Shown here one piece after another: positions 127 to 21,243 of a stretch of 25,759 bases of DNA. Position 1 is the stretch's first letter. Every line of letters starts with the position of its first letter. The translations under genes were made by a program, and so were the position numbers. The stretch is from a virus, in the IMG/VR virus record IMGVR_UViG_3300046665_000492, positions 1-25,759 of that record; one strand, written 5' to 3'. The notes under the pieces were generated by a model. That model did no database searches and was not told the origin of the DNA. It saw only the letters and a list, made by a program, of their open reading frames with translations.

Positions 127-136
127 AATTTAGGTG

Positions 137-187
137 TTTACAAGTGCAACAGTATTTGTTATTATTAACTTATCGCAAGAGCGATAC
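137..187 (+). promoter_or_regulatory. Sigma-A promoter P1 with palindromic operator O1
   Basis: The -35 is TTTACA (137-142) and the -10 is TATTAT (160-165), 17 bp apart. The operator TTATCGC-AAGA-GCGATAC (170-187) covers the expected start site. The same layout, including the GTTTACAAGTGCAAC block around the -35, recurs at 829, 1490 and 21169. A protein bound here would block initiation. Confidence 0.85.
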
Positions 188-214
188 AATAACTAAATAA
201 AAGGAGAGTTTAAA

Positions 215-3567: not shown

Positions 3568-3611
3568 AAGGGTTATTTTTCGCCTCCTTTTTTCGGTCAA
3601 AAATCGACAAA

Positions 3612-3784
3612 ATTCTTTCCAACCTTTTTTCCAACCTTTTTTCCAACCTAAATTTTCGATTCTTTCCAACCGACAAGGAGCCTAGAGCCTTACTCTCCCA
3701 AGGGTTACAGCGTTTAGGAAAAACGATTCTTTCCAACCGATTTTTTTCATTCTTTCCAACCTTTTTTCCAACTGTTTTTCCACA
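3612..3784 (+). repeat. Iteron-like TTTCCAACC array with symmetric spacing
   Basis: TTTCCAAC(C/T) occurs in direct orientation starting at 3616, 3628, 3640, 3663, 3730, 3753 and 3765, and a related TTTTCCACA (a DnaA-box-like word) aligns at 3777. The steps are 12, 12, 23, 67, 23, 12, 12, a mirror-symmetric series. The two central copies share the 17-mer CGATTCTTTCCAACCGA. An AT-rich stretch follows (3790-3827). Candidate origin, centromere, transfer origin or operator. A near-Spo0A box (ATCGACA, 3603-3609) abuts it. With the hairpin at 3828 this accounts for the 365-base gap between 3502 and 3869. Confidence 0.85.
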
Positions 3785-3827
3785 AACAAGAATTACTTAA
3801 AGAATTATATATATTTAAAAGAATATT

Positions 3828-3868: not shown

Positions 3869-4294
3869 ATGTTCAAGGTAAAAACAAAAACTATTTCGTA
3901 TCATGACTTTATGGATGGCTCATACAAGTTAAAAGCAAAAGAGAAAACGATCCGTAATTTACACTTCGCTTTATTAGGAGCCTCGCTCGTTTATTCTGTA
4001 TTAGATCCGTTTGGAGGTACGATAGCTAGCGCCTCCGTTAGTGGAGCAATTACAGAGGGAGTACAAGATCGGATTATTAGAGCTTTTGATCCTATAATCC
4101 AATTAGCTCAAGGTTGCTCATATCCAGTAGCGTTTTTAATGTTAGTGCTAGGCGGAATAATGATAATGCTAGGACAAAAAACTCAAGGGCTACGGATCCT
4201 CAAGTATACGGCTATAGGATATATCGTTATCCAGTTTGCGCCCTCTATAATGGCTATACTTGCAGAAGTAGGAAAGGCGATTAGCCAATCATGA
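3869..4294 (+). CDS. Small multi-spanning membrane protein, VirB2/TrbC-like
   Basis: The 141-aa protein has a basic N-terminus (about 1-28), a hydrophobic segment near 30-46, an amphipathic loop, and two clear C-terminal membrane helices (YPVAFLMLVLGGIMIMLG, about 85-102, and YTAIGYIVIQFAPSIMAIL, about 113-131). This resembles small pilin-like subunits (VirB2/TrbC) or membrane partners of conjugation ATPases, though it lacks a conventional signal peptide. It overlaps the ATPase gene by ATGA, so the pair is translated together and probably forms a membrane complex. A holin is less likely given the long N-terminal domain and the partner gene. Confidence 0.6.
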   Translation: MFKVKTKTISYHDFMDGSYKLKAKEKTIRNLHFALLGASLVYSVLDPFGGTIASASVSGAITEGVQDRIIRAFDPIIQLAQGCSYPVAFLMLVLGGIMIMLGQKTQGLRILKYTAIGYIVIQFAPSIMAILAEVGKAISQS

Positions 4295-6456
4295 TACATT
4301 TACGAATAATACCGGACAATCAGATCGATAATACAAAAGTTGAAATTTTAGCTCGTAGTTTAAGCCGCTACGAGCCTCTTTTTAAGCGCTGGGATAGTCA
4401 AGCTAAAAAGTTTTCTAAACAGCCCTTTATTTCGTTCGAGTCCGTTTTATCCAGCAAAGGAGCCGAGTTTATCGTAACAGTTAAAGACGAAAGCGAGGAG
4501 ATAGCTCGGAAAGCTATAGAGAGTACGTTCCCTAAAGCGACGATAGAAAAAGTAGAGGATCCCTTTACGATTGAGCCTACTCTAACATCCGAACTCGCTT
4601 ATCATAACCATTACTTTTTATCCCTCCGGATAGATCGGAGAACTAATTCCCTACTAGCCGCTCTACTGGATACAATCAGTATGTTAACCGCTGGAGAGAT
4701 AATTTATGTACAGAATTTAGCGATACCGGCGGCGACTGATTGGTATATAGGAGCTGTAGAGGCGTATAAGAAGTTTAAAAACGGATCTTTGCCTAGAAAA
4801 GTACACCTAGAGAAAAAGGAGTTAACTAATTACGGTTTACGCCTAGCAGCAAAAACCCTAGCCTCTACCGCTAACTCGCTCGTACACTTGCTAGGATCAA
4901 AACCGGAGGATCCGATAGATCTAGACGGCTGGGATCGTTCTCAAATACTAAAAGAGGGATATTTAAGGCAAGAGACAATTAACAAGGCTAGAGGAGAGGC
5001 TTTCGACGTTACAATCAGAATTGGAGTAAAAGCTAACGATACGAATAGGGCTAGGGATCTTTTAAATATGGTTTATACGGCTTTTCGTTCCCTAGATGGG
5101 GATAATTATCTCAAAGACAAGAAAACGCCCTTAAAACGGACGTATGAGCTTTTAAAGGAAAGGCGGTCTAGTTTAAAGGCTCAAAAAGATTATATGAGCA
5201 TACAGGAGTTTTCTCGTTTGCTGCTAATGCCTCCGTATCACCTACAAGAAAAGTACAATATACAAAATGTATCTAGTCTTGAGCAAAAGCTACCGGATCG
5301 ATTATTAAAAGGCGGCATGTGGTTAGGAGAGCAGCAATTCCGAGGAAAGTCCGAAAAAGTTTATTTTCCCACAACTAACCTAGATGAGTTATGTTTGCCT
5401 AGAGTCGTTATAGGCGGTATGGGATCCGGTAAAACAAAAGGCTACGGCGCTAACTGGATGTATCAAGCTGTTTTAAATGGCTACGGCGCTTTATGTTTGG
5501 ATCCAGCTAAAGGAGAGATAGGGCTAGAATTAAAAAGTAAGTTACCGCCGGAGAAAATAATCCGGATCAATATAGGAGAGACGCCTATCTCTTTAGATTG
5601 GCGAGAGGCATACCATAGCAAAAACTCAAAAGGGAGGCTAGCTAATACGATCCTCTCCTTTTTCAATAACACAACCGACGAGACAGGCGCACAAACTAGC
5701 CGTTATATAAGAGCCGCTGTTATGGCTATGACGAGCGGAAAGCTCTCGGAGATACTTTCTATACTGGAGGAGCCAAAAACTCGAGAGGAGGCGATTTCGA
5801 GACTCTCGGACGGTATCCATAAAACCACGCTACAAGATTTACATGAGCATAGCGACGGACGCCGGAGACAGATCCTCGAGCCTATTTTAAATCGTTTTGA
5901 TCTAATTCTAGGCGACGAGTTTCTAAGTAGCTGCTTTAATGCCGATAAGGGCATAGATCTAGTCGAGCTTATGAGCCAAAAGAAAGCAATTATATTTGAT
6001 GTTCCTAAAAGTATTGTAGGCGAGGAGGGCGTCGAGATTATAGGGAGTCTTATTAGCACGAAAATAGACATAGCTATGACGCTCCGAAAAGAAAAGGATC
6101 AATTCCCTTTCTTTGTTGTGATGGATGAGCCTCACCAGTATTCTAAAAGCGCTCGAGTTTGGAAAAACGCCTCCGTAGAAAGTCGTAAATGGAGAGTCGG
6201 GTACGTTTGGATGTTTCATGAATGGAAACAAATTAACGCAGATCTCCGGGATATCATTAAAAGTGCTTTACCTCACTATCACATATATTCTAGCTCGAAA
6301 AATACGTATAAAGACTTGCTCGATGAATTAAGACCGTTAACCCTAGAGGACTGTATGAAAACAAAAACTCACTATGCTATTAACTCTATAAGATCCGGCG
6401 GAGACTATATAAAACCATTTGTAGCAAAAATGGCTCCTCCTCCGAGTATGCAATAG
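4291..6456 (+). CDS. VirD4/VirB4/HerA-type DNA-translocation ATPase
   Basis: The 721-aa protein has an N-terminal domain of about 365 residues and a RecA-like motor. Walker A is GGMGSGKTKG (375-384); Walker B is FFVVMDEPHQY (607-617). LDPAKGEIG (403-411) fits the strand after Walker A seen in coupling proteins and VirB4/HerA ATPases. The N-terminal part has no strong membrane helix, so anchoring would come from the coupled protein at 3869. Known relatives pump DNA or protein during conjugation, type IV secretion or chromosome handling. It is not the phage terminase, which is present separately at 24587. No relaxase is in the window. Confidence 0.8.
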   Translation: MIHLRIIPDNQIDNTKVEILARSLSRYEPLFKRWDSQAKKFSKQPFISFESVLSSKGAEFIVTVKDESEEIARKAIESTFPKATIEKVEDPFTIEPTLTSELAYHNHYFLSLRIDRRTNSLLAALLDTISMLTAGEIIYVQNLAIPAATDWYIGAVEAYKKFKNGSLPRKVHLEKKELTNYGLRLAAKTLASTANSLVHLLGSKPEDPIDLDGWDRSQILKEGYLRQETINKARGEAFDVTIRIGVKANDTNRARDLLNMVYTAFRSLDGDNYLKDKKTPLKRTYELLKERRSSLKAQKDYMSIQEFSRLLLMPPYHLQEKYNIQNVSSLEQKLPDRLLKGGMWLGEQQFRGKSEKVYFPTTNLDELCLPRVVIGGMGSGKTKGYGANWMYQAVLNGYGALCLDPAKGEIGLELKSKLPPEKIIRINIGETPISLDWREAYHSKNSKGRLANTILSFFNNTTDETGAQTSRYIRAAVMAMTSGKLSEILSILEEPKTREEAISRLSDGIHKTTLQDLHEHSDGRRRQILEPILNRFDLILGDEFLSSCFNADKGIDLVELMSQKKAIIFDVPKSIVGEEGVEIIGSLISTKIDIAMTLRKEKDQFPFFVVMDEPHQYSKSARVWKNASVESRKWRVGYVWMFHEWKQINADLRDIIKSALPHYHIYSSSKNTYKDLLDELRPLTLEDCMKTKTHYAINSIRSGGDYIKPFVAKMAPPPSMQ

Positions 6457-6481
6457 ATCCCTTTTATCGGGATCTTTTTTT
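6455..6481 (+). terminator. Intrinsic terminator after the ATPase gene
   Basis: AGATCCC (6455-6461) and GGGATCT (6469-6475) with a 7-base loop, followed by seven T. It overlaps the ATPase stop codon and insulates the Spo0E-like promoter. Confidence 0.85.
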
Positions 6482-6492
6482 ATTTTCGATAA

Positions 6493-6555
6493 TTCGACAA
6501 AAAACTATTTACAAGTTATCGCTAATAAGATAATATAACGTTAGAACTTGTCGAA
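6493..6555 (+). promoter_or_regulatory. Promoter P5 with operator O5 and two flanking Spo0A boxes
   Basis: TTTACA (6508-6513), 17 bp, TAATAT (6531-6536). The operator TTATCGC-TAAT-AAGATAA (6516-6533) lies between -35 and -10. An exact 0A box in reverse (TTCGACA, 6493-6499) starts 15 bp upstream of the -35. A second exact box (TGTCGAA, 6549-6555) lies just past the expected start and abuts the ribosome site. The TGTCGAA core is the established Spo0A target; action here is inference. Confidence 0.75.
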
Positions 6556-6570
6556 GGGAGACGAAAAAAG

Positions 6571-6762
6571 ATGAATAGTAAGATTGGTCTAGAAAGTAAA
6601 ATCGACGCTCTACGCTCCGCTATGGTAGCCGCTGGAATGAGTAAAGGGTTTACGGATCCGGAAACGATCCGCCTTTCTCAAGAGCTAGATTTATTAATAC
6701 ATGAAGCAATGGTAAACGAAAAACGCAAACAAGAGGAGAGTAAATATGTATACAATCGATGA
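6571..6762 (+). CDS. Spo0E-like aspartyl-phosphate phosphatase
   Basis: The 63-aa protein matches the Spo0E family pattern: a first helix (LESKIDALRSAMVAAGMSKG), a link (FTDPETIRL) and the signature SQELDLLI in the second helix. Family members (Spo0E, YisI, YnzD) form a two-helix hairpin that dephosphorylates Spo0A~P, delaying sporulation. Length is typical and the SQELD signature is intact. Its promoter carries exact Spo0A boxes on both sides, so a phage-borne feedback loop on host Spo0A is likely. The last 17 bases overlap the ERF gene, tying its expression to the recombination genes. Confidence 0.88.
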   Translation: MNSKIGLESKIDALRSAMVAAGMSKGFTDPETIRLSQELDLLIHEAMVNEKRKQEESKYVYNR

Positions 6763-7648
6763 AATTAAAAAGTTGCCGTTAGAGGAGCGAAAAGAGGTTT
6801 TAGGACTTCTCGCTCAACTTAAAAAGAAAAAGGCGGCTGTAGTCGCTGGAGTAACTCGTATTCCTAAAAACGGCTATAACAGCTTTCATAAATACCATTA
6901 TTCAACAGAGAGCGACGTTAAAGAGGGCGTTCGTATTCTTCTATCAGAAAACGGATTAACACTCGATACGGAGTTAGTCGAGGATAAGAAAGAGATTGTT
7001 AAAACAAAACAGGGCGAGCAATGGCTAACAACCGTTAAAATGATGTTTACTCTAACGGATAATGATACCGGCTATATGGATATCCAGTACAACAAAGCGG
7101 AGGCTACGGACTCCGGGGATAAAGGATTATATAAAGCGTATTCCGGCTGTATTAAATACTATTTCTTGAATAACTTTCAAATTGCTAGCGGCGACGATCC
7201 GGAGCAAGGGGAAAGCGATCAAATTATCAAAGATGATAAAAAGCAGCAGCAGCGAGGGCGACAAGGTGGAAACGATAATAAACGTAAGCCGGACAAGCCT
7301 AAAGTAACAAAAGCTACACTGGAGGCGAAATGGAAACAATTAAATAACGGCTCGCTTGACGGTTTGGACGAGTACCTAGAAAAGAAAGCGGCGGAGGGCA
7401 AAGATTATAGCCATGTAGACGCTATCCTATTAGGAAGTATCCAAAAGAAACAAGCTCAAGAGGCGAAAGCTAAAAAGGAGCAGGAGCAAGCGAAAAAAGA
7501 GCAAGAGCAGCAGGAACAAAAAACTAATATCGATATCACTCCGGAGGAAATCGACAAAGCTCTACAAGAGGAGCAAGGAGCAAAGGTTACGGATGTAGCG
7601 GACGGAAAAACTTACATCCATAACGGAAAAGAGATCGTTTTAGATTAA
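6746..7648 (+). CDS. erf: ERF-family single-strand annealing protein
   Basis: The N-terminal 160 or so residues fit the ERF recombinase family: GYNSFHKYHY followed by a helix, LSENGLTLDTEL, and the conserved end DSGDKGLYKAYSGCIKYY with NFQIASGDDPE. ERF proteins anneal complementary single strands during phage recombination and genome circularisation. The C-terminal half (about 165-300) is a low-complexity Gln/Glu/Lys linker and acidic tail, common in this family and possibly contacting SSB. AAGAGGAGAG precedes the ATG. Transcribed with the Spo0E-like gene from P5 and ended by the hairpin at 7657. Confidence 0.88.
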   Translation: MYTIDEIKKLPLEERKEVLGLLAQLKKKKAAVVAGVTRIPKNGYNSFHKYHYSTESDVKEGVRILLSENGLTLDTELVEDKKEIVKTKQGEQWLTTVKMMFTLTDNDTGYMDIQYNKAEATDSGDKGLYKAYSGCIKYYFLNNFQIASGDDPEQGESDQIIKDDKKQQQRGRQGGNDNKRKPDKPKVTKATLEAKWKQLNNGSLDGLDEYLEKKAAEGKDYSHVDAILLGSIQKKQAQEAKAKKEQEQAKKEQEQQEQKTNIDITPEEIDKALQEEQGAKVTDVADGKTYIHNGKEIVLD

Positions 7649-7656
7649 TGTTAACC

Positions 7657-7685
7657 GGAGCGGAGGAGAGCCGCTCCTTTATTTT
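7657..7685 (+). terminator. Intrinsic terminator after erf
   Basis: GGAGCGG (7657-7663) and CCGCTCC (7671-7677) around AGGAGAG, followed by TTTATTTT. Confidence 0.85.
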
Positions 7686-7708: not shown

Positions 7709-8647
7709 ATGGATCAAAAGCATTTACAGGTTTTAAACAGAATTGATGATCTAGAGAATGAGCATTGTAAAGGCTGCAAAATTAAAGAGGAGCTACGCAA
7801 ACAAAACGGACAGCCGCTCCAGTATTGTATTTTTTCCTGCAAGATCGGAAAGAAAATAAAGCAGCTCGGCGGCGTCCTTGAGTATGGCATAGTACAAAAC
7901 GTACACGCTAAAGCGCTGGATCTCACCAAGGATAAATACATAGATCTACGTAACGACGGATTGAACGATAGACAGATCCGGGAGAAATACGGCATATCTC
8001 GAGCTACGATGTTTCGGAGAAAAGAAGCGTGGGAGCTTACAGGAAAAACCGGGTTATATAGTCATCGATACACTCCGCTTAAAAAGCTAACAAAAGAAAA
8101 ATTACAAGATATGTGCATGTTTATGACAGAGCAGGAGATAGCGGATAAATTAGGCGTATCTTTAGCTACGATACGGAAATATCGTTATAGATGGGGAATA
8201 GAGTTAGTTTTTGGTAAAGCAAAAGATAAATACAGCAAAACCGAGTTTCTTTATCTCCGGGATAAAAAAGGACTCAATAGAGCGCAGATATGCGAGCTAT
8301 GGGAGGTTTCGGAAAGTACCCTTTATATCCTAATGAAAGAGTGGGGATTAATTAAAGAGCGTCGTTATGCCAATAAAGAAGGGTTAACGAAAGAGCGATT
8401 AACGGAGCTTGCTAAAGCACATACTGATATAGAGATAGCAGCAATGTACAACTTTACAAAAAATACCGTTTGGAAGTACCGGAAAAAGTGGGGAATACCA
8501 GCTTTAAAGCGTGAGATCCCGGCAAAAGCTTTAAAGAAAATGTTAGCCAAAGGCATGAAGCGTAAAGACATAGCCGAGCATTACGGCGTTAACGTTTCGA
8601 CAATTTATAAAAAGATCATCAAATACCGACAACAAAATTTATTATAA
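7709..8647 (+). CDS. Zinc-knuckle protein with five tandem HTH units
   Basis: Residues 19-44 hold HCKGC and YCIFSC, a Cys4 site like the zf-C2HCIx2C zinc-finger family of Bacillus phages. Then come five homologous units of about 40-50 residues, each ending in a helix-turn-helix: NDRQIREKYGISRATMF (about 86-102), EQEIADKLGVSLATIRKY (141-158), NRAQICELWEVSESTLY (190-206), DIEIAAMYNFTKNTVWKY (240-257) and KRKDIAEHYGVNVSTIY (284-300), the first four followed by a W/R-rich end. Such a chain could read a long repeated DNA site or recruit resolvase/transposase-like partners. No catalytic domain is visible. It sits alone between a terminator and P6. Confidence 0.8.
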   Translation: MDQKHLQVLNRIDDLENEHCKGCKIKEELRKQNGQPLQYCIFSCKIGKKIKQLGGVLEYGIVQNVHAKALDLTKDKYIDLRNDGLNDRQIREKYGISRATMFRRKEAWELTGKTGLYSHRYTPLKKLTKEKLQDMCMFMTEQEIADKLGVSLATIRKYRYRWGIELVFGKAKDKYSKTEFLYLRDKKGLNRAQICELWEVSESTLYILMKEWGLIKERRYANKEGLTKERLTELAKAHTDIEIAAMYNFTKNTVWKYRKKWGIPALKREIPAKALKKMLAKGMKRKDIAEHYGVNVSTIYKKIIKYRQQNLL

Positions 8648-8691
8648 TTCGACAAAAAGAGCTTGTAATATTATCGCTGGAGTGTTAAACT
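8648..8691 (+). promoter_or_regulatory. Promoter P6 of the XRE gene with operator O6 and a Spo0A box
   Basis: TTGTAA (8663-8668), 17 bp, TAAACT (8686-8691). The operator TTATCGC-TGGA-GTGTTAA (8671-8688) sits in the spacer, as in P5 and P7. An exact reverse 0A box (TTCGACA, 8648-8654) starts 15 bp before the -35, the same offset as at P5. A further TTCGACA lies at 8596-8602 inside the preceding gene. This suggests autoregulation plus Spo0A input. Confidence 0.7.
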
Positions 8692-8740: not shown

Positions 8741-8998
8741 ATGACTGAAAATAAAACACCTTCAATAAAGTTGAAGGAATTACGAATTAAAGCCGGCTTG
8801 AGTCAAAATAAGCTAGCTAAACTAGCTGAGGTTAGTCAATCACATATTAGCGAGATCGAAAGCGGAGTTAAACGAGTTAGCCTAGATATTACTCGAAAGT
8901 TAGCTCGAGCGCTGGATGTTCCGTTTATGGCATTAATTAGCGAGGACTTTCTCGAGGAGAGCGAGGAAGAAATCGAGCAGGAGCAAGACGAGGAGTAA
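8741..8998 (+). CDS. XRE-family transcriptional repressor candidate
   Basis: An 85-aa protein with a canonical XRE/Cro/CI helix-turn-helix: LKELRIKAGLSQNKLAKLAE, then VSQSHISEIESG (recognition helix, about 31-42), KRVSLDITRKLARALDV. The C-terminus is a short acidic tail (EESEEEIEQEQDEE) with no oligomerisation or LexA-type self-cleavage domain, so inactivation would not be by RecA-stimulated cleavage. Its own promoter carries the shared operator, making it the best candidate for the protein that controls the seven-site regulon; the five-HTH protein and the HTH protein at 13454 are alternatives. Confidence 0.88.
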   Translation: MTENKTPSIKLKELRIKAGLSQNKLAKLAEVSQSHISEIESGVKRVSLDITRKLARALDVPFMALISEDFLEESEEEIEQEQDEE

Positions 8999-13329: not shown

Positions 13330-13394
13330 ATCGACAAATATTTTAATAATGTTGTCGTTTCGTGCTTGTATTATTATCGCTTTAGTGATAAGAT
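13330..13394 (+). promoter_or_regulatory. Promoter P7 with operator O7 and a near-Spo0A box
   Basis: TTGTAT (13366-13371), 17 bp, TAAGAT (13389-13394). The operator TTATCGC-TTTA-GTGATAA (13374-13391) is in the spacer, 3 bp past the -35 as in P5 and P6. ATCGACA (13330-13336) is one base off a 0A box. This promoter should drive the HTH-SSB-dUTPase block. Confidence 0.75.
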
Positions 13395-13453: not shown

Positions 13454-13978
13454 ATGTTTAAAAAAGAATGGGCTTTTGATAGTGACGTATTTAAACTAGG
13501 GACTCCGGTACAAGTTAAAGGTATCGATTGCGAGGGCGAGCAAGTTAATTTCAAAGGGCTAGTAAAGAAGAACCTTTTAAATGATATTGTCCTAGTTGAC
13601 GTTTTCGGATTAGAGTTACAAATTAACATTAATGATGTACATGGAGCGCCGGATCGAGTGGTAGATCCCGACTTCCAAGAAATAGGCTTTTACATTAGCG
13701 TAGCAAGTTTTGATAAAGCTCCGATAAAATCGGAAAACGCTACATTGATCGAGCCGCTTATTGATCCAGCCGAAACGATGGAGGATATAAGCTCCAGCAA
13801 ACGAGGCGGACATATTACGGCTAACGGCGGTAAACATATCCCTCACGAAACAAGAGAGGCTATCCGTCAATTACGAAAAGCTCGCCCGGATGTAAGACAA
13901 AAAGATATAGCGGAGCTTTTTGGAGTAGGGCGCTCCACGATTTCAAATATTTTAAACGAGGTAGCGGATAATGAGTAA
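13454..13978 (+). CDS. HTH protein with a beta-rich N-terminal domain (174 aa)
   Basis: Residues 1-65 look like a small beta barrel (GTPVQVKGIDCEGEQVNFKG, VLVDVFGLELQINI). The C-terminus (about 128-172) is a resolvase-like HTH: ETREAIRQLRKARPDVRQKDIAELFGVGRSTISNIL, described by its key pieces QKDIAELFGVG and RSTISNIL. The combination suggests a DNA-binding regulator or replication accessory; the HTH resembles the units of the five-HTH protein at 7709. First gene of the P7 operon, overlapping the next by 8 bp. Confidence 0.7.
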   Translation: MFKKEWAFDSDVFKLGTPVQVKGIDCEGEQVNFKGLVKKNLLNDIVLVDVFGLELQININDVHGAPDRVVDPDFQEIGFYISVASFDKAPIKSENATLIEPLIDPAETMEDISSSKRGGHITANGGKHIPHETREAIRQLRKARPDVRQKDIAELFGVGRSTISNILNEVADNE

Positions 13979-18821: not shown

Positions 18822-19126
18822 AAACTTTTAACCTCCCAGTATTTAATTTTGTCTAACAGAAAACATGATAACATAATTTGTCACATTTTGGCGACTAACT
18901 AGAAAATTTTCCAATCGATGAGACATAGATCTCTCGTAATAGTGCCATAGATAAAGATAATTATTGTTTTAGCGGTATTTGTCGAAAGTCCAAGTAAAAA
19001 AATATTCCTTTTTCTGAAATATGTAGTATTATATTTCTACAGGGAGCAATTTTCTATATAACTATGAGAGTCCAAAAAATACTATTGAAAAGTCCATTCA
19101 ACTATTTTTCTCATATAGATTATTGC
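18822..19126. promoter_or_regulatory. Non-coding control region with minus promoter and Spo0A box
   Basis: No gene seen. A minus-strand promoter is TAGAAA (19056-19051), 17 bp, TATAAT (19033-19028), placed to drive the 18821-17805 unit with a leader of about 200 nt. The inverted repeat TGTAG...CTACA (19022-19041) brackets its -10. An exact 0A box (TGTCGAA) is at 18981-18987, downstream of the start site, so Spo0A could block elongation or act on another promoter. AGTCCA recurs at about 18989, 19069 and 19091. The stretch is AT-rich. Confidence 0.55.
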
Positions 19127-20660: not shown

Positions 20661-21071
20661 TTAGTTTCGGATGTAAAAAACATCTGTATAGAAAGTACCG
20701 TCGTATTTAGTCCAATAACCCTCACTATCGTAGCGGTCTACATCTACAGCAAAGCGAAAGATACCGGTCTTACCATAAAAGTATTTAATATCGATAGTAT
20801 CGTAATACTTTTGCTCCGGATCCAAAGGGTTTGGACTATTCCAATCTAAATCAACCCATTTACCGTTAACGTACTGTTGCCCTTGCAAGTTTGCTCCAGC
20901 GCTATAAGCATTGTCATTCTTTACGGCTACTACTACCTCTTTATCAGTAGCATAAGAATAATTTTGTTTTGTCGTATTAGCGGATACTCCCCAGCCGCTC
21001 GCAGCAGAAGCAGCGGAGCCGCCTACTACTAATCCAATAAGAACTAAAAAAGATGTTAAAAGTTTTTTCAT
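20661..21071 (-). CDS. Secreted protein with signal peptide (136 aa)
   Basis: The N-terminus is a classical signal peptide: MKK, a hydrophobic core (LLTSFLVLIGLVVGG) and an AXA-type site around ASA near residues 21-24. The mature part is polar and aromatic with a beta-sandwich look (WGVSANTTKQNYSYATDKEVVVAVKN, IFRFAVDVDRYDSEGYWTKYDGTFYTDVF, key blocks only) and no Cys. GGAGG precedes the ATG. It resembles small exported Bacillus proteins and would be an unusual cargo in a phage early region, perhaps a lysogenic-conversion or cell-surface gene. Its promoter has tandem Spo0A boxes. Confidence 0.75.
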   Translation of the reverse strand: MKKLLTSFLVLIGLVVGGSAASAASGWGVSANTTKQNYSYATDKEVVVAVKNDNAYSAGANLQGQQYVNGKWVDLDWNSPNPLDPEQKYYDTIDIKYFYGKTGIFRFAVDVDRYDSEGYWTKYDGTFYTDVFYIRN

Positions 21072-21107
21072 AATCTAACCTCCATTAGCAAAATATGACT
21101 CTAGAGG

Positions 21108-21152
21108 ATTATATAACAATGTTTTTGAAAAATCGACAAAATGTTTTCGACA
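21108..21152 (-). promoter_or_regulatory. Leftward promoter with tandem Spo0A boxes
   Basis: A minus-strand TATAAT (21113-21108) has no good -35 at 17 bp. Instead, 0A boxes TGTCGAT (21138-21132) and TGTCGAA (21152-21146) lie in the same orientation, 14 bp apart, at about -31 to -37 and -45 to -51 from the expected start. This is like Spo0A-activated sigma-A promoters such as spoIIG, where boxes replace a proper -35. It would drive the secreted protein gene. Confidence 0.6.
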
Positions 21153-21168
21153 AATTTTAAAATAAGTG

Positions 21169-21219
21169 TTTACAAGTGCAACTATATTTGATATTATTAA
21201 TTTATCGCAAGAGCGATAA
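21169..21219 (+). promoter_or_regulatory. Sigma-A promoter P4 with perfect operator O4
   Basis: TTTACA (21169-21174), 17 bp, TATTAT (21192-21197). Operator TTATCGC-AAGA-GCGATAA (21202-21219) is a perfect 7+7 palindrome, the best of the seven. The -35 to spacer block is almost identical to P1 although about 21 kb away. The tandem Spo0A boxes lie just upstream, shared with the leftward promoter. Confidence 0.88.
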
Positions 21220-21243
21220 TAAAAAACAAAGGAGAAATGCAAA

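What the first reader, a model, noticed from the sequence alone, without database searches (positions are those of the whole stretch)
6493..6762. Phage Spo0E-like gene behind a promoter flanked by Spo0A boxes
The 63-aa product carries the Spo0E signature SQELD...LI, so it should dephosphorylate Spo0A~P. Its promoter has an exact reverse 0A box 15 bp before the -35 and an exact 0A box just after the start site, with the phage operator in the spacer. This links a host sporulation signal, the phage repressor system and a phage enzyme that resets the signal: a negative feedback loop allowing lytic genes (erf follows in the same operon) to run when the cell tries to sporulate.
Basis: partly seen in the sequence, partly recalled or inferred. 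Interest (0 to 1): 0.88.

Follow-up and report, generated by a model that had tools for sequence, protein, structure and literature searches.

The report
Phage Spo0E gene flanked by Spo0A boxes
This virus of a spore-forming bacterium carries an enzyme gene that should switch off the host's sporulation signal, and the promoter of that gene is flanked by sequences that look like landing sites for that same signal protein; the enzyme is old and shared by sister phages, while the landing sites are specific to this phage and still unproven.

Summary
The 63-aa ORF at 6571-6762 is a Spo0E-family protein (Pfam PF09388, 48.6 bits against a cut-off of 23; AlphaFold hairpin matching PDB 2C0S, TM 0.77), with the SQELD motif intact. 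Exact TGTCGAA cores lie at 6493-6499 (-) and 6549-6555 (+), around a TTTACA-17-TAATAT promoter with a degenerate phage operator in its spacer. spo0E and erf form a two-gene unit between two terminators.

(1) spo0E lies between the same ATPase gene and erf in TP-84, PK2.1, vB_BpsM-61 and an IMG/VR contig. All keep the promoter with a palindrome in the spacer, so spo0E is an ancestral early gene.
(2) TTGTCGA is the third most enriched intergenic heptamer in the window (8 copies, 0.24 expected). Five copies lie upstream of operator-bearing promoters, including that of the XRE regulator.
(3) The boxes are not conserved in the relatives that keep spo0E.

So the phosphatase and the XRE-controlled operon are well supported. 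Direct Spo0A control is a good but unproven hypothesis (about 0.5). Phage Spo0E genes and phage Spo0A boxes are each known; I found no report combining them.

The parts
6571..6762 (+). spo0E-like gene, 63 aa, Spo0A~P phosphatase family
   Evidence: PF09388 48.6 bits, cut-off 23; PDB 2C0S and 2BZB matched by profile and 2C0S by fold
6746..7648 (+). erf ssDNA-annealing protein gene; its start overlaps the end of spo0E by 17 nt
   Evidence: PF04404 38 bits and phrog_155
6508..6536 (+). sigma-A-type promoter TTTACA-17-TAATAT of the spo0E-erf unit
   Evidence: orthologous promoters in four other phages keep the -35/17/-10 layout
6516..6533 (+). degenerate phage operator TTATCGCTAATAAGATAA in the promoter spacer
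   Evidence: 2 of 14 mismatches to TTATCGCnnnnGCGATAA; spacer palindrome conserved in relatives
6493..6499 (-). upstream TGTCGAA core (0A-box-like), about -50 to -44, A/T flanks
6549..6555 (+). downstream TGTCGAA core, about +7 to +13, abutting the Shine-Dalgarno
6455..6475 (+). terminator-like hairpin upstream of the unit
7657..7677 (+). terminator-like hairpin after erf
8648..8654 (-). TGTCGAA core upstream of the XRE gene promoter; 15-nt block ATAATTCGACAAAAA identical to 6488-6502 and at the same distance from the -35
   Evidence: conserved in a 93.6% identical contig, L059
8663..8691 (+). promoter TTGTAA-17-TAAACT of the XRE gene, half-operator TTATCGC in the spacer
8741..8998 (+). XRE (Cro/CI-type) regulator, 85 aa, presumed to bind the TTATCGC operators
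   Evidence: HTH_3 57.1 bits; 49% and 42% identical over 57-60 aa to the XRE proteins of TP-84 and BpsM-61
13330..13394 (+). promoter TTGTAT-17-TAAGAT with spacer operator TTATCGCTTTAGTGATAA and an upstream TTGTCGA (-) box, before the gene at 13454 (HTH at its C-terminus)
21132..21152 (-). tandem boxes TTTGTCGAAAA and TTTGTCGATTT between the 21071 (-) and 21244 (+) genes
18980..18986 (+). further intergenic TGTCGAA

Best explanation
The unit at 6480-7680 is an early phage operon, spo0E-erf. Its promoter is shut by the phage's XRE regulator through an operator in the spacer. Its first product, a Spo0E-family hairpin phosphatase, removes phosphate from host Spo0A~P so that an infected cell does not enter sporulation while the phage replicates. 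In this phage, host Spo0A~P itself also reads the promoter, and at least three other phage promoter regions, through TTTGTCGA boxes. The spo0E-erf promoter therefore reports the sporulation state and the product erases it: a closed loop. With one box at about -47 and one at about +10, the likeliest response is bandpass-like: low Spo0A~P tolerated or stimulating, high Spo0A~P blocking the early genes. Shown: gene family, fold, motif, operon layout, operator in the spacer, phage-wide enrichment of the box word. Inferred: phosphatase activity, XRE binding, Spo0A binding, the sign of regulation, and that the host sporulates.
For: PF09388 over the cut-off and SQELD intact. Sequence and fold match to the solved B. 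anthracis Spo0E-like phosphatase 2C0S. Synteny ATPase - spo0E - (XRE, RecB-like) - erf in TP-84, PK2.1 and BpsM-61, and ATPase - spo0E - erf in L003. Promoter with a palindromic operator in the 17-bp spacer in all five. The window's Spo0E scores best against three other phage Spo0E proteins (110-113), ahead of any of 52 chromosomal ones (best 92). Box word: TTGTCGA ranks 3 of 1809 intergenic heptamers, 8 observed, 0.24 expected, Poisson 2e-10. Five of 8 copies lie within 60 bp upstream of 7 operator-bearing promoters (binomial 0.0012), all in the same orientation. The core fits the Spo0A box: G2, C4 and G5 are the contacted bases, with A/T flanks (PMC3485338). phi29 shows the same TTCGACAA next to its late promoter region, and Spo0A control of phi29 is reported (PMC9437464). 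Chromosomal spo0E-family genes also carry more TGTCGAA than chance in 150 bp upstream: 6 observed, 1.3 expected, 0 of 300 shuffles.
Against: No box upstream of the spo0E promoter in L003, TP-84 or PK2.1, and the one in BpsM-61 is simply its -35. No intergenic enrichment in most relatives. Three of the 8 sites are TGTCGAT, not the perfect core. The box word could belong to a phage-encoded regulator, of which the window has several. Host unknown: no close match among about 790 sampled genomes of two Bacillota orders. Phosphatase activity of this protein is untested.
Confidence: 0.5

Rival explanations
1. Spo0E works as above, but the TTTGTCGA boxes are sites of a phage-encoded transcription factor (for example the 312-aa zinc-finger/HTH protein 7709-8647, or the HTH protein 13454-13978), not of Spo0A. 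The resemblance to the 0A box is coincidental, and the loop with the host signal does not exist at the DNA level.
For: The word is phage-wide and sits beside the phage operators in a fixed orientation. Relatives infecting spore formers lack it. Several uncharacterised HTH proteins are encoded nearby. No Spo0A C-terminal domain protein is encoded in the window, so such a factor would be of another kind.
Against: The word matches the 0A core plus A/T flanks closely (5 of 8 exact). L003 keeps a 7709 homologue yet has no box. Some chromosomal spo0E genes also carry the core.
Confidence: 0.3
2. Spo0A~P represses the phage early genes, as in phi29, so that infection pauses in a sporulating cell and the genome may be trapped in the spore; Spo0E then makes a bistable escape (double-negative loop).
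For: The downstream box sits between the start site and the ribosome-binding site. Spo0A boxes suspend the lytic cycle in phi29 (PMC9437464). The XRE promoter carries the same upstream block, so the early genes would be co-regulated.
Against: The upstream boxes are at -44 and beyond, which does not obviously occlude polymerase. No relative shows this layout. The sign cannot be read from sequence.
Confidence: 0.3
3. One reading: Spo0A~P activates P6508, raising Spo0E and erf when the cell tries to sporulate (negative feedback).
For: The upstream box (-50 to -44) is close to the -35. Four of the five upstream sites lie about 14 bp, or about 14 bp plus two helical turns, from the -35 (measured by hand).
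Against: P6508 already has good -35 and -10 elements and a downstream box in a blocking position; the XRE regulator would rise as well.
Confidence: 0.2
4. The boxes have no function: A-tract/UP-like DNA upstream and a Shine-Dalgarno context downstream. Only Spo0E and the XRE operator matter.
For: The upstream boxes run into A-tracts and the downstream box runs into GAAGGGAG. The orthologous promoters do without them.
Against: Enrichment of TTGTCGA beyond dinucleotide composition, third of all intergenic heptamers. The box upstream of the XRE promoter is kept in a 93.6% identical relative while nearby bases changed.
Confidence: 0.15

Closest known systems
Spo0E-family aspartyl-phosphate phosphatases (Spo0E, YisI, YnzD; PF09388; PDB 2C0S, 2BZB)
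   Same: Two-helix hairpin of about 60 aa, SQELD signature with the functionally implicated aspartate; profile and fold match
   Different: Phage-encoded, first gene of an erf operon, under a phage operator; about 30% identical to 2C0S; activity untested
spo0E-like gene of Geobacillus phages TP-84 and PK2.1 and Bacillus phage vB_BpsM-61
   Same: Same place (ATPase gene upstream, erf downstream), same promoter layout with an operator in the spacer; annotated as Spo0E-like in PK2.1 and BpsM-61 and in a review of TP-84 (PMC10969951)
   Different: These have XRE as the second gene, a different operator half-site, and no TGTCGAA upstream of the promoter
phi29/Nf Spo0A-controlled promoters
   Same: Phage promoters carrying 0A boxes; TTCGACAA also in the phi29 A2-A3 region
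   Different: phi29 is not related and has no PF09388 match; here the controlled operon encodes a Spo0A~P phosphatase
(Pro)phage spo0E or abrB homologues next to RRNPP quorum-sensing genes (PMC10075063)
   Same: Phage copy of a sporulation-initiation regulator under phage control
   Different: There the control is a peptide receptor; here an XRE operator plus 0A-box-like sites
CtrA boxes in Alphaproteobacteria phages, 'lytic deferment' (PMC9437464)
   Same: Sites for a host master regulator concentrated in phage promoters
   Different: Other regulator and host group; no phage-encoded enzyme acting on that regulator is part of the passages read

Membership tests
Spo0E family (PF09388) | Profile match over the curated cut-off | tested here: met
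   48.6 bits, cut-off 23
Spo0E family (PF09388) | SQELD signature with the aspartate | tested here: met
   S36 Q37 E38 L39 D40 invariant in five phages
Spo0E family (PF09388) | Two-helix antiparallel hairpin | tested here: met
   AF2 pLDDT 82, helices 3-25 and 30-61; best PDB match 2C0S, TM 0.77, E 0.04, prob 1.00
Spo0E family (PF09388) | Dephosphorylates Spo0A~P | not testable with these tools
   needs a biochemical assay
Spo0A-regulated promoter | TGTCGAA core(s) with A/T flanks near the promoter | tested here: met
   two exact cores; the downstream one lacks A/T 3' flanks
Spo0A-regulated promoter | Sites more frequent than chance | tested here: met
Spo0A-regulated promoter | Sites conserved at orthologous promoters | tested here: not met
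   absent in L003, TP-84, PK2.1; in BpsM-61 only as the -35
Spo0A-regulated promoter | Spo0A binding and spo0A-dependent activity | not testable with these tools
   needs gel shift and reporters
Phage XRE-operator-controlled early operon | Repeated palindromic operator overlapping phage promoters, with an XRE gene nearby | tested here: met
   operators with 0-2 mismatches at 170, 862, 6516, 8671, 13374, 21202; XRE gene at 8741

The most novel reading that the evidence does not exclude
A phage that both reads and erases the host sporulation master signal: Spo0A~P binds TTTGTCGA boxes at four or more phage promoter regions, one of which drives the phage's own Spo0A~P phosphatase together with its recombinase, with the phage XRE operator in the same promoter. 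This would be a closed, phage-owned feedback loop on a host developmental decision.
Probability: 0.45. Interest if true: 0.78.

Novelty: new variant of a known kind. Interest (0 to 1): 0.62.

Why it matters
Phages are known to carry sporulation genes, and phi29 is known to be held back by Spo0A, but the phage-carried sporulation regulators in the papers read here mostly have no shown function or wiring. A phage spo0E under a Spo0A-readable promoter would be a testable, minimal circuit in which a virus senses and cancels the host's dormancy decision. The promoter (about 90 bp) and the enzyme (63 aa) are small enough to test in B. subtilis laboratory strains. The conserved ATPase - spo0E - erf order in phages of at least two host genera also gives an ancestral, repeatedly kept, presumably anti-sporulation gene to study.

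Tried and rejected
DNA search of the locus against phage records: no match. Composite pattern TTCGACAA plus operator across IMG/VR: none. Erf searched in 397 and 395 sampled genomes to find the host: only 42% identity or less. A phage-encoded Spo0A DNA-binding domain in the window was considered as the binder: none. TGTCGAA pair in L024 (12028 and 12093): it appears to lie beyond the end of a minus-strand gene, not at a promoter (read by eye), so it was dropped. Three chromosomal Spo0E queries against phages found nothing, not even the known phage copies, so these searches are not sensitive for 40-aa proteins. A tree of the 42-residue domain was too poor to test monophyly. LexA-, DnaA- and AbrB-type sites were considered from memory and do not fit TTTGTCGA.

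Full report
What was claimed and what is there. The 63-aa ORF at 6571-6762 matches Pfam PF09388 (Spo0E-like) with 48.6 bits over a cut-off of 23 and carries SQELDLLI at residues 36-43. A profile of five phage sequences finds the two solved B. anthracis Spo0E-like phosphatases, 2C0S and 2BZB (E 2e-10 and 9e-8). The AlphaFold model is a two-helix hairpin (pLDDT 82) whose best PDB match is 2C0S (TM 0.77, E 0.04, probability 1.00). The aspartate of the signature motif, functionally implicated in Spo0E (Diaz et al. 2008, cited in PMC3035606), is intact.

The promoter. TTTACA-17-TAATAT at 6508-6536 follows a terminator-like hairpin at 6455-6475. The spo0E end overlaps the erf start, and a second hairpin lies at 7657-7677, so spo0E-erf reads as a two-gene unit. 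TGTCGAA occurs exactly at 6493-6499 (-) and 6549-6555 (+). The spacer holds TTATCGCTAATAAGATAA, two mismatches from a palindrome TTATCGCnnnnGCGATAA that occurs with 0-1 mismatches at 170, 862, 13374 and 21202, and with two at 8671. These lie in or just after promoters, so this is very likely the phage operator, and the XRE protein at 8741-8998 its reader; binding is inferred.

Relatives. In TP-84, PK2.1, vB_BpsM-61 and the IMG/VR contig L003, a spo0E gene lies between a homologue of the 721-aa ATPase gene and erf. In TP-84, PK2.1 and BpsM-61 it is followed by an XRE gene, a RecB-like gene and erf. Aligned promoters keep -35, 17 bp and TAATAT (TATATT in BpsM-61), with a palindrome filling the spacer, although the half-site differs between phages. 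The window's Spo0E scores better against three other phage Spo0E proteins than against any of 52 chromosomal ones. So spo0E looks like an inherited early gene of this phage group, not a recent pick-up; most other records with the ATPase lack it (5 of 32 records searched have it, one of them a 99.9% identical contig). The operator at the spo0E promoter is conserved.

The boxes. They are not conserved: none upstream of the promoter in L003, TP-84 or PK2.1, and in BpsM-61 the single TTGTCGAA is the -35 element. Within this phage, however, they are far from random. Five of six TGTCGAA copies are intergenic (0.30 expected, 0 of 1000 shuffles reach five). Among 1809 intergenic heptamers TTGTCGA ranks third (8 seen, 0.24 expected), next to the ribosome-binding word and the operator word. 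Five of the eight lie within 60 bp upstream of operator-bearing promoters (P 0.0012), all in the same orientation. The block ATAATTCGACAAAAA is repeated exactly upstream of the spo0E and XRE promoters, 14 bp from TCGACAA to the -35 in both, and survives in a 93.6% identical relative whose neighbouring bases changed. In about 25 related loci and phages no comparable enrichment is seen, apart from one to two copies in a few. phi29, whose Spo0A control is reported in PMC9437464, has TTCGACAA in its A2-A3 region. Chromosomal spo0E-family genes carry 6 TGTCGAA in 9.2 kb of upstream DNA, against 1.3 expected, so Spo0A control of spo0E genes may not be limited to this phage.

Reading. A functional phage regulatory word matching the 0A box is well supported. 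That Spo0A is its reader is the best single guess (about 0.5), because the contacted bases G2, C4 and G5 (PMC3485338) are kept at all eight sites and A/T flanks at most of them. A phage factor remains a serious rival (0.3). The sign is open. A box between the start site and the ribosome-binding site argues for blocking at high Spo0A~P; a box at -50 to -44 could stimulate; together they resemble the bandpass control described for host phosphorelay promoters (PMC3182994).

Novelty. Phage spo0E genes are annotated (TP-84 in PMC10969951; phage spo0E beside quorum-sensing genes in PMC10075063), and phage Spo0A boxes are known (phi29). In the open-access library searched I found no report of a phage spo0E under a promoter with Spo0A boxes; subscription papers are largely missing from it. 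Hence a new variant of a known kind.

Limits. The window is a 25.8-kb virus record; the host is unknown, and whether the phage is temperate is unknown (no integrase among the window proteins searched here). Gene calls outside the searched proteins are ORF-based. The motif statistics were done after the motif was noticed, although the heptamer ranking itself does not depend on that. The rival confidences overlap, because the sign of regulation and the identity of the binder are separate questions.

Noticed in passing
window 3603-3790: Iteron-like repeats of TTTCCAACC in a non-coding stretch, with a TTTGTCGATTTTT box at its edge; candidate replication origin or partition site.
   Followed up: no
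window 134-190, 826-880, 1487-1540, 21169-21220: Repeated promoter cassette TTTACAAGTGCAAC...TATTAT with the operator just after the -10, in front of small genes of unknown function.
   Followed up: partly
window 4291-6456: 721-aa VirD4/FtsK-like ATPase (phrog_5156) shared by dozens of Bacillus-group phages; function in phages unknown.
   Followed up: partly
window 20661-21152 (-): Putative secreted protein (phrog_17102) whose own TATAAT lies 18 nt downstream of tandem TTTGTCGAAAA/TTTGTCGATTT boxes, with no clear -35; the layout recalls Spo0A-activated sigma-A promoters (from memory).
   Followed up: partly
upstream of chromosomal spo0E-family genes (L099, L116, L119, L122, L143, L150): TGTCGAA is about 4.7 times over-represented in 150 bp upstream of 62 chromosomal spo0E-family genes (6 against 1.3), hinting at direct Spo0A control of some.
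   Followed up: partly
L003 225-325 and 2465-2500: In L003 the spo0E and XRE promoters share TTGTCATATTAyCG instead of the TTCGACAA block: the two promoters again share one layout, suggesting co-regulation.
   Followed up: no
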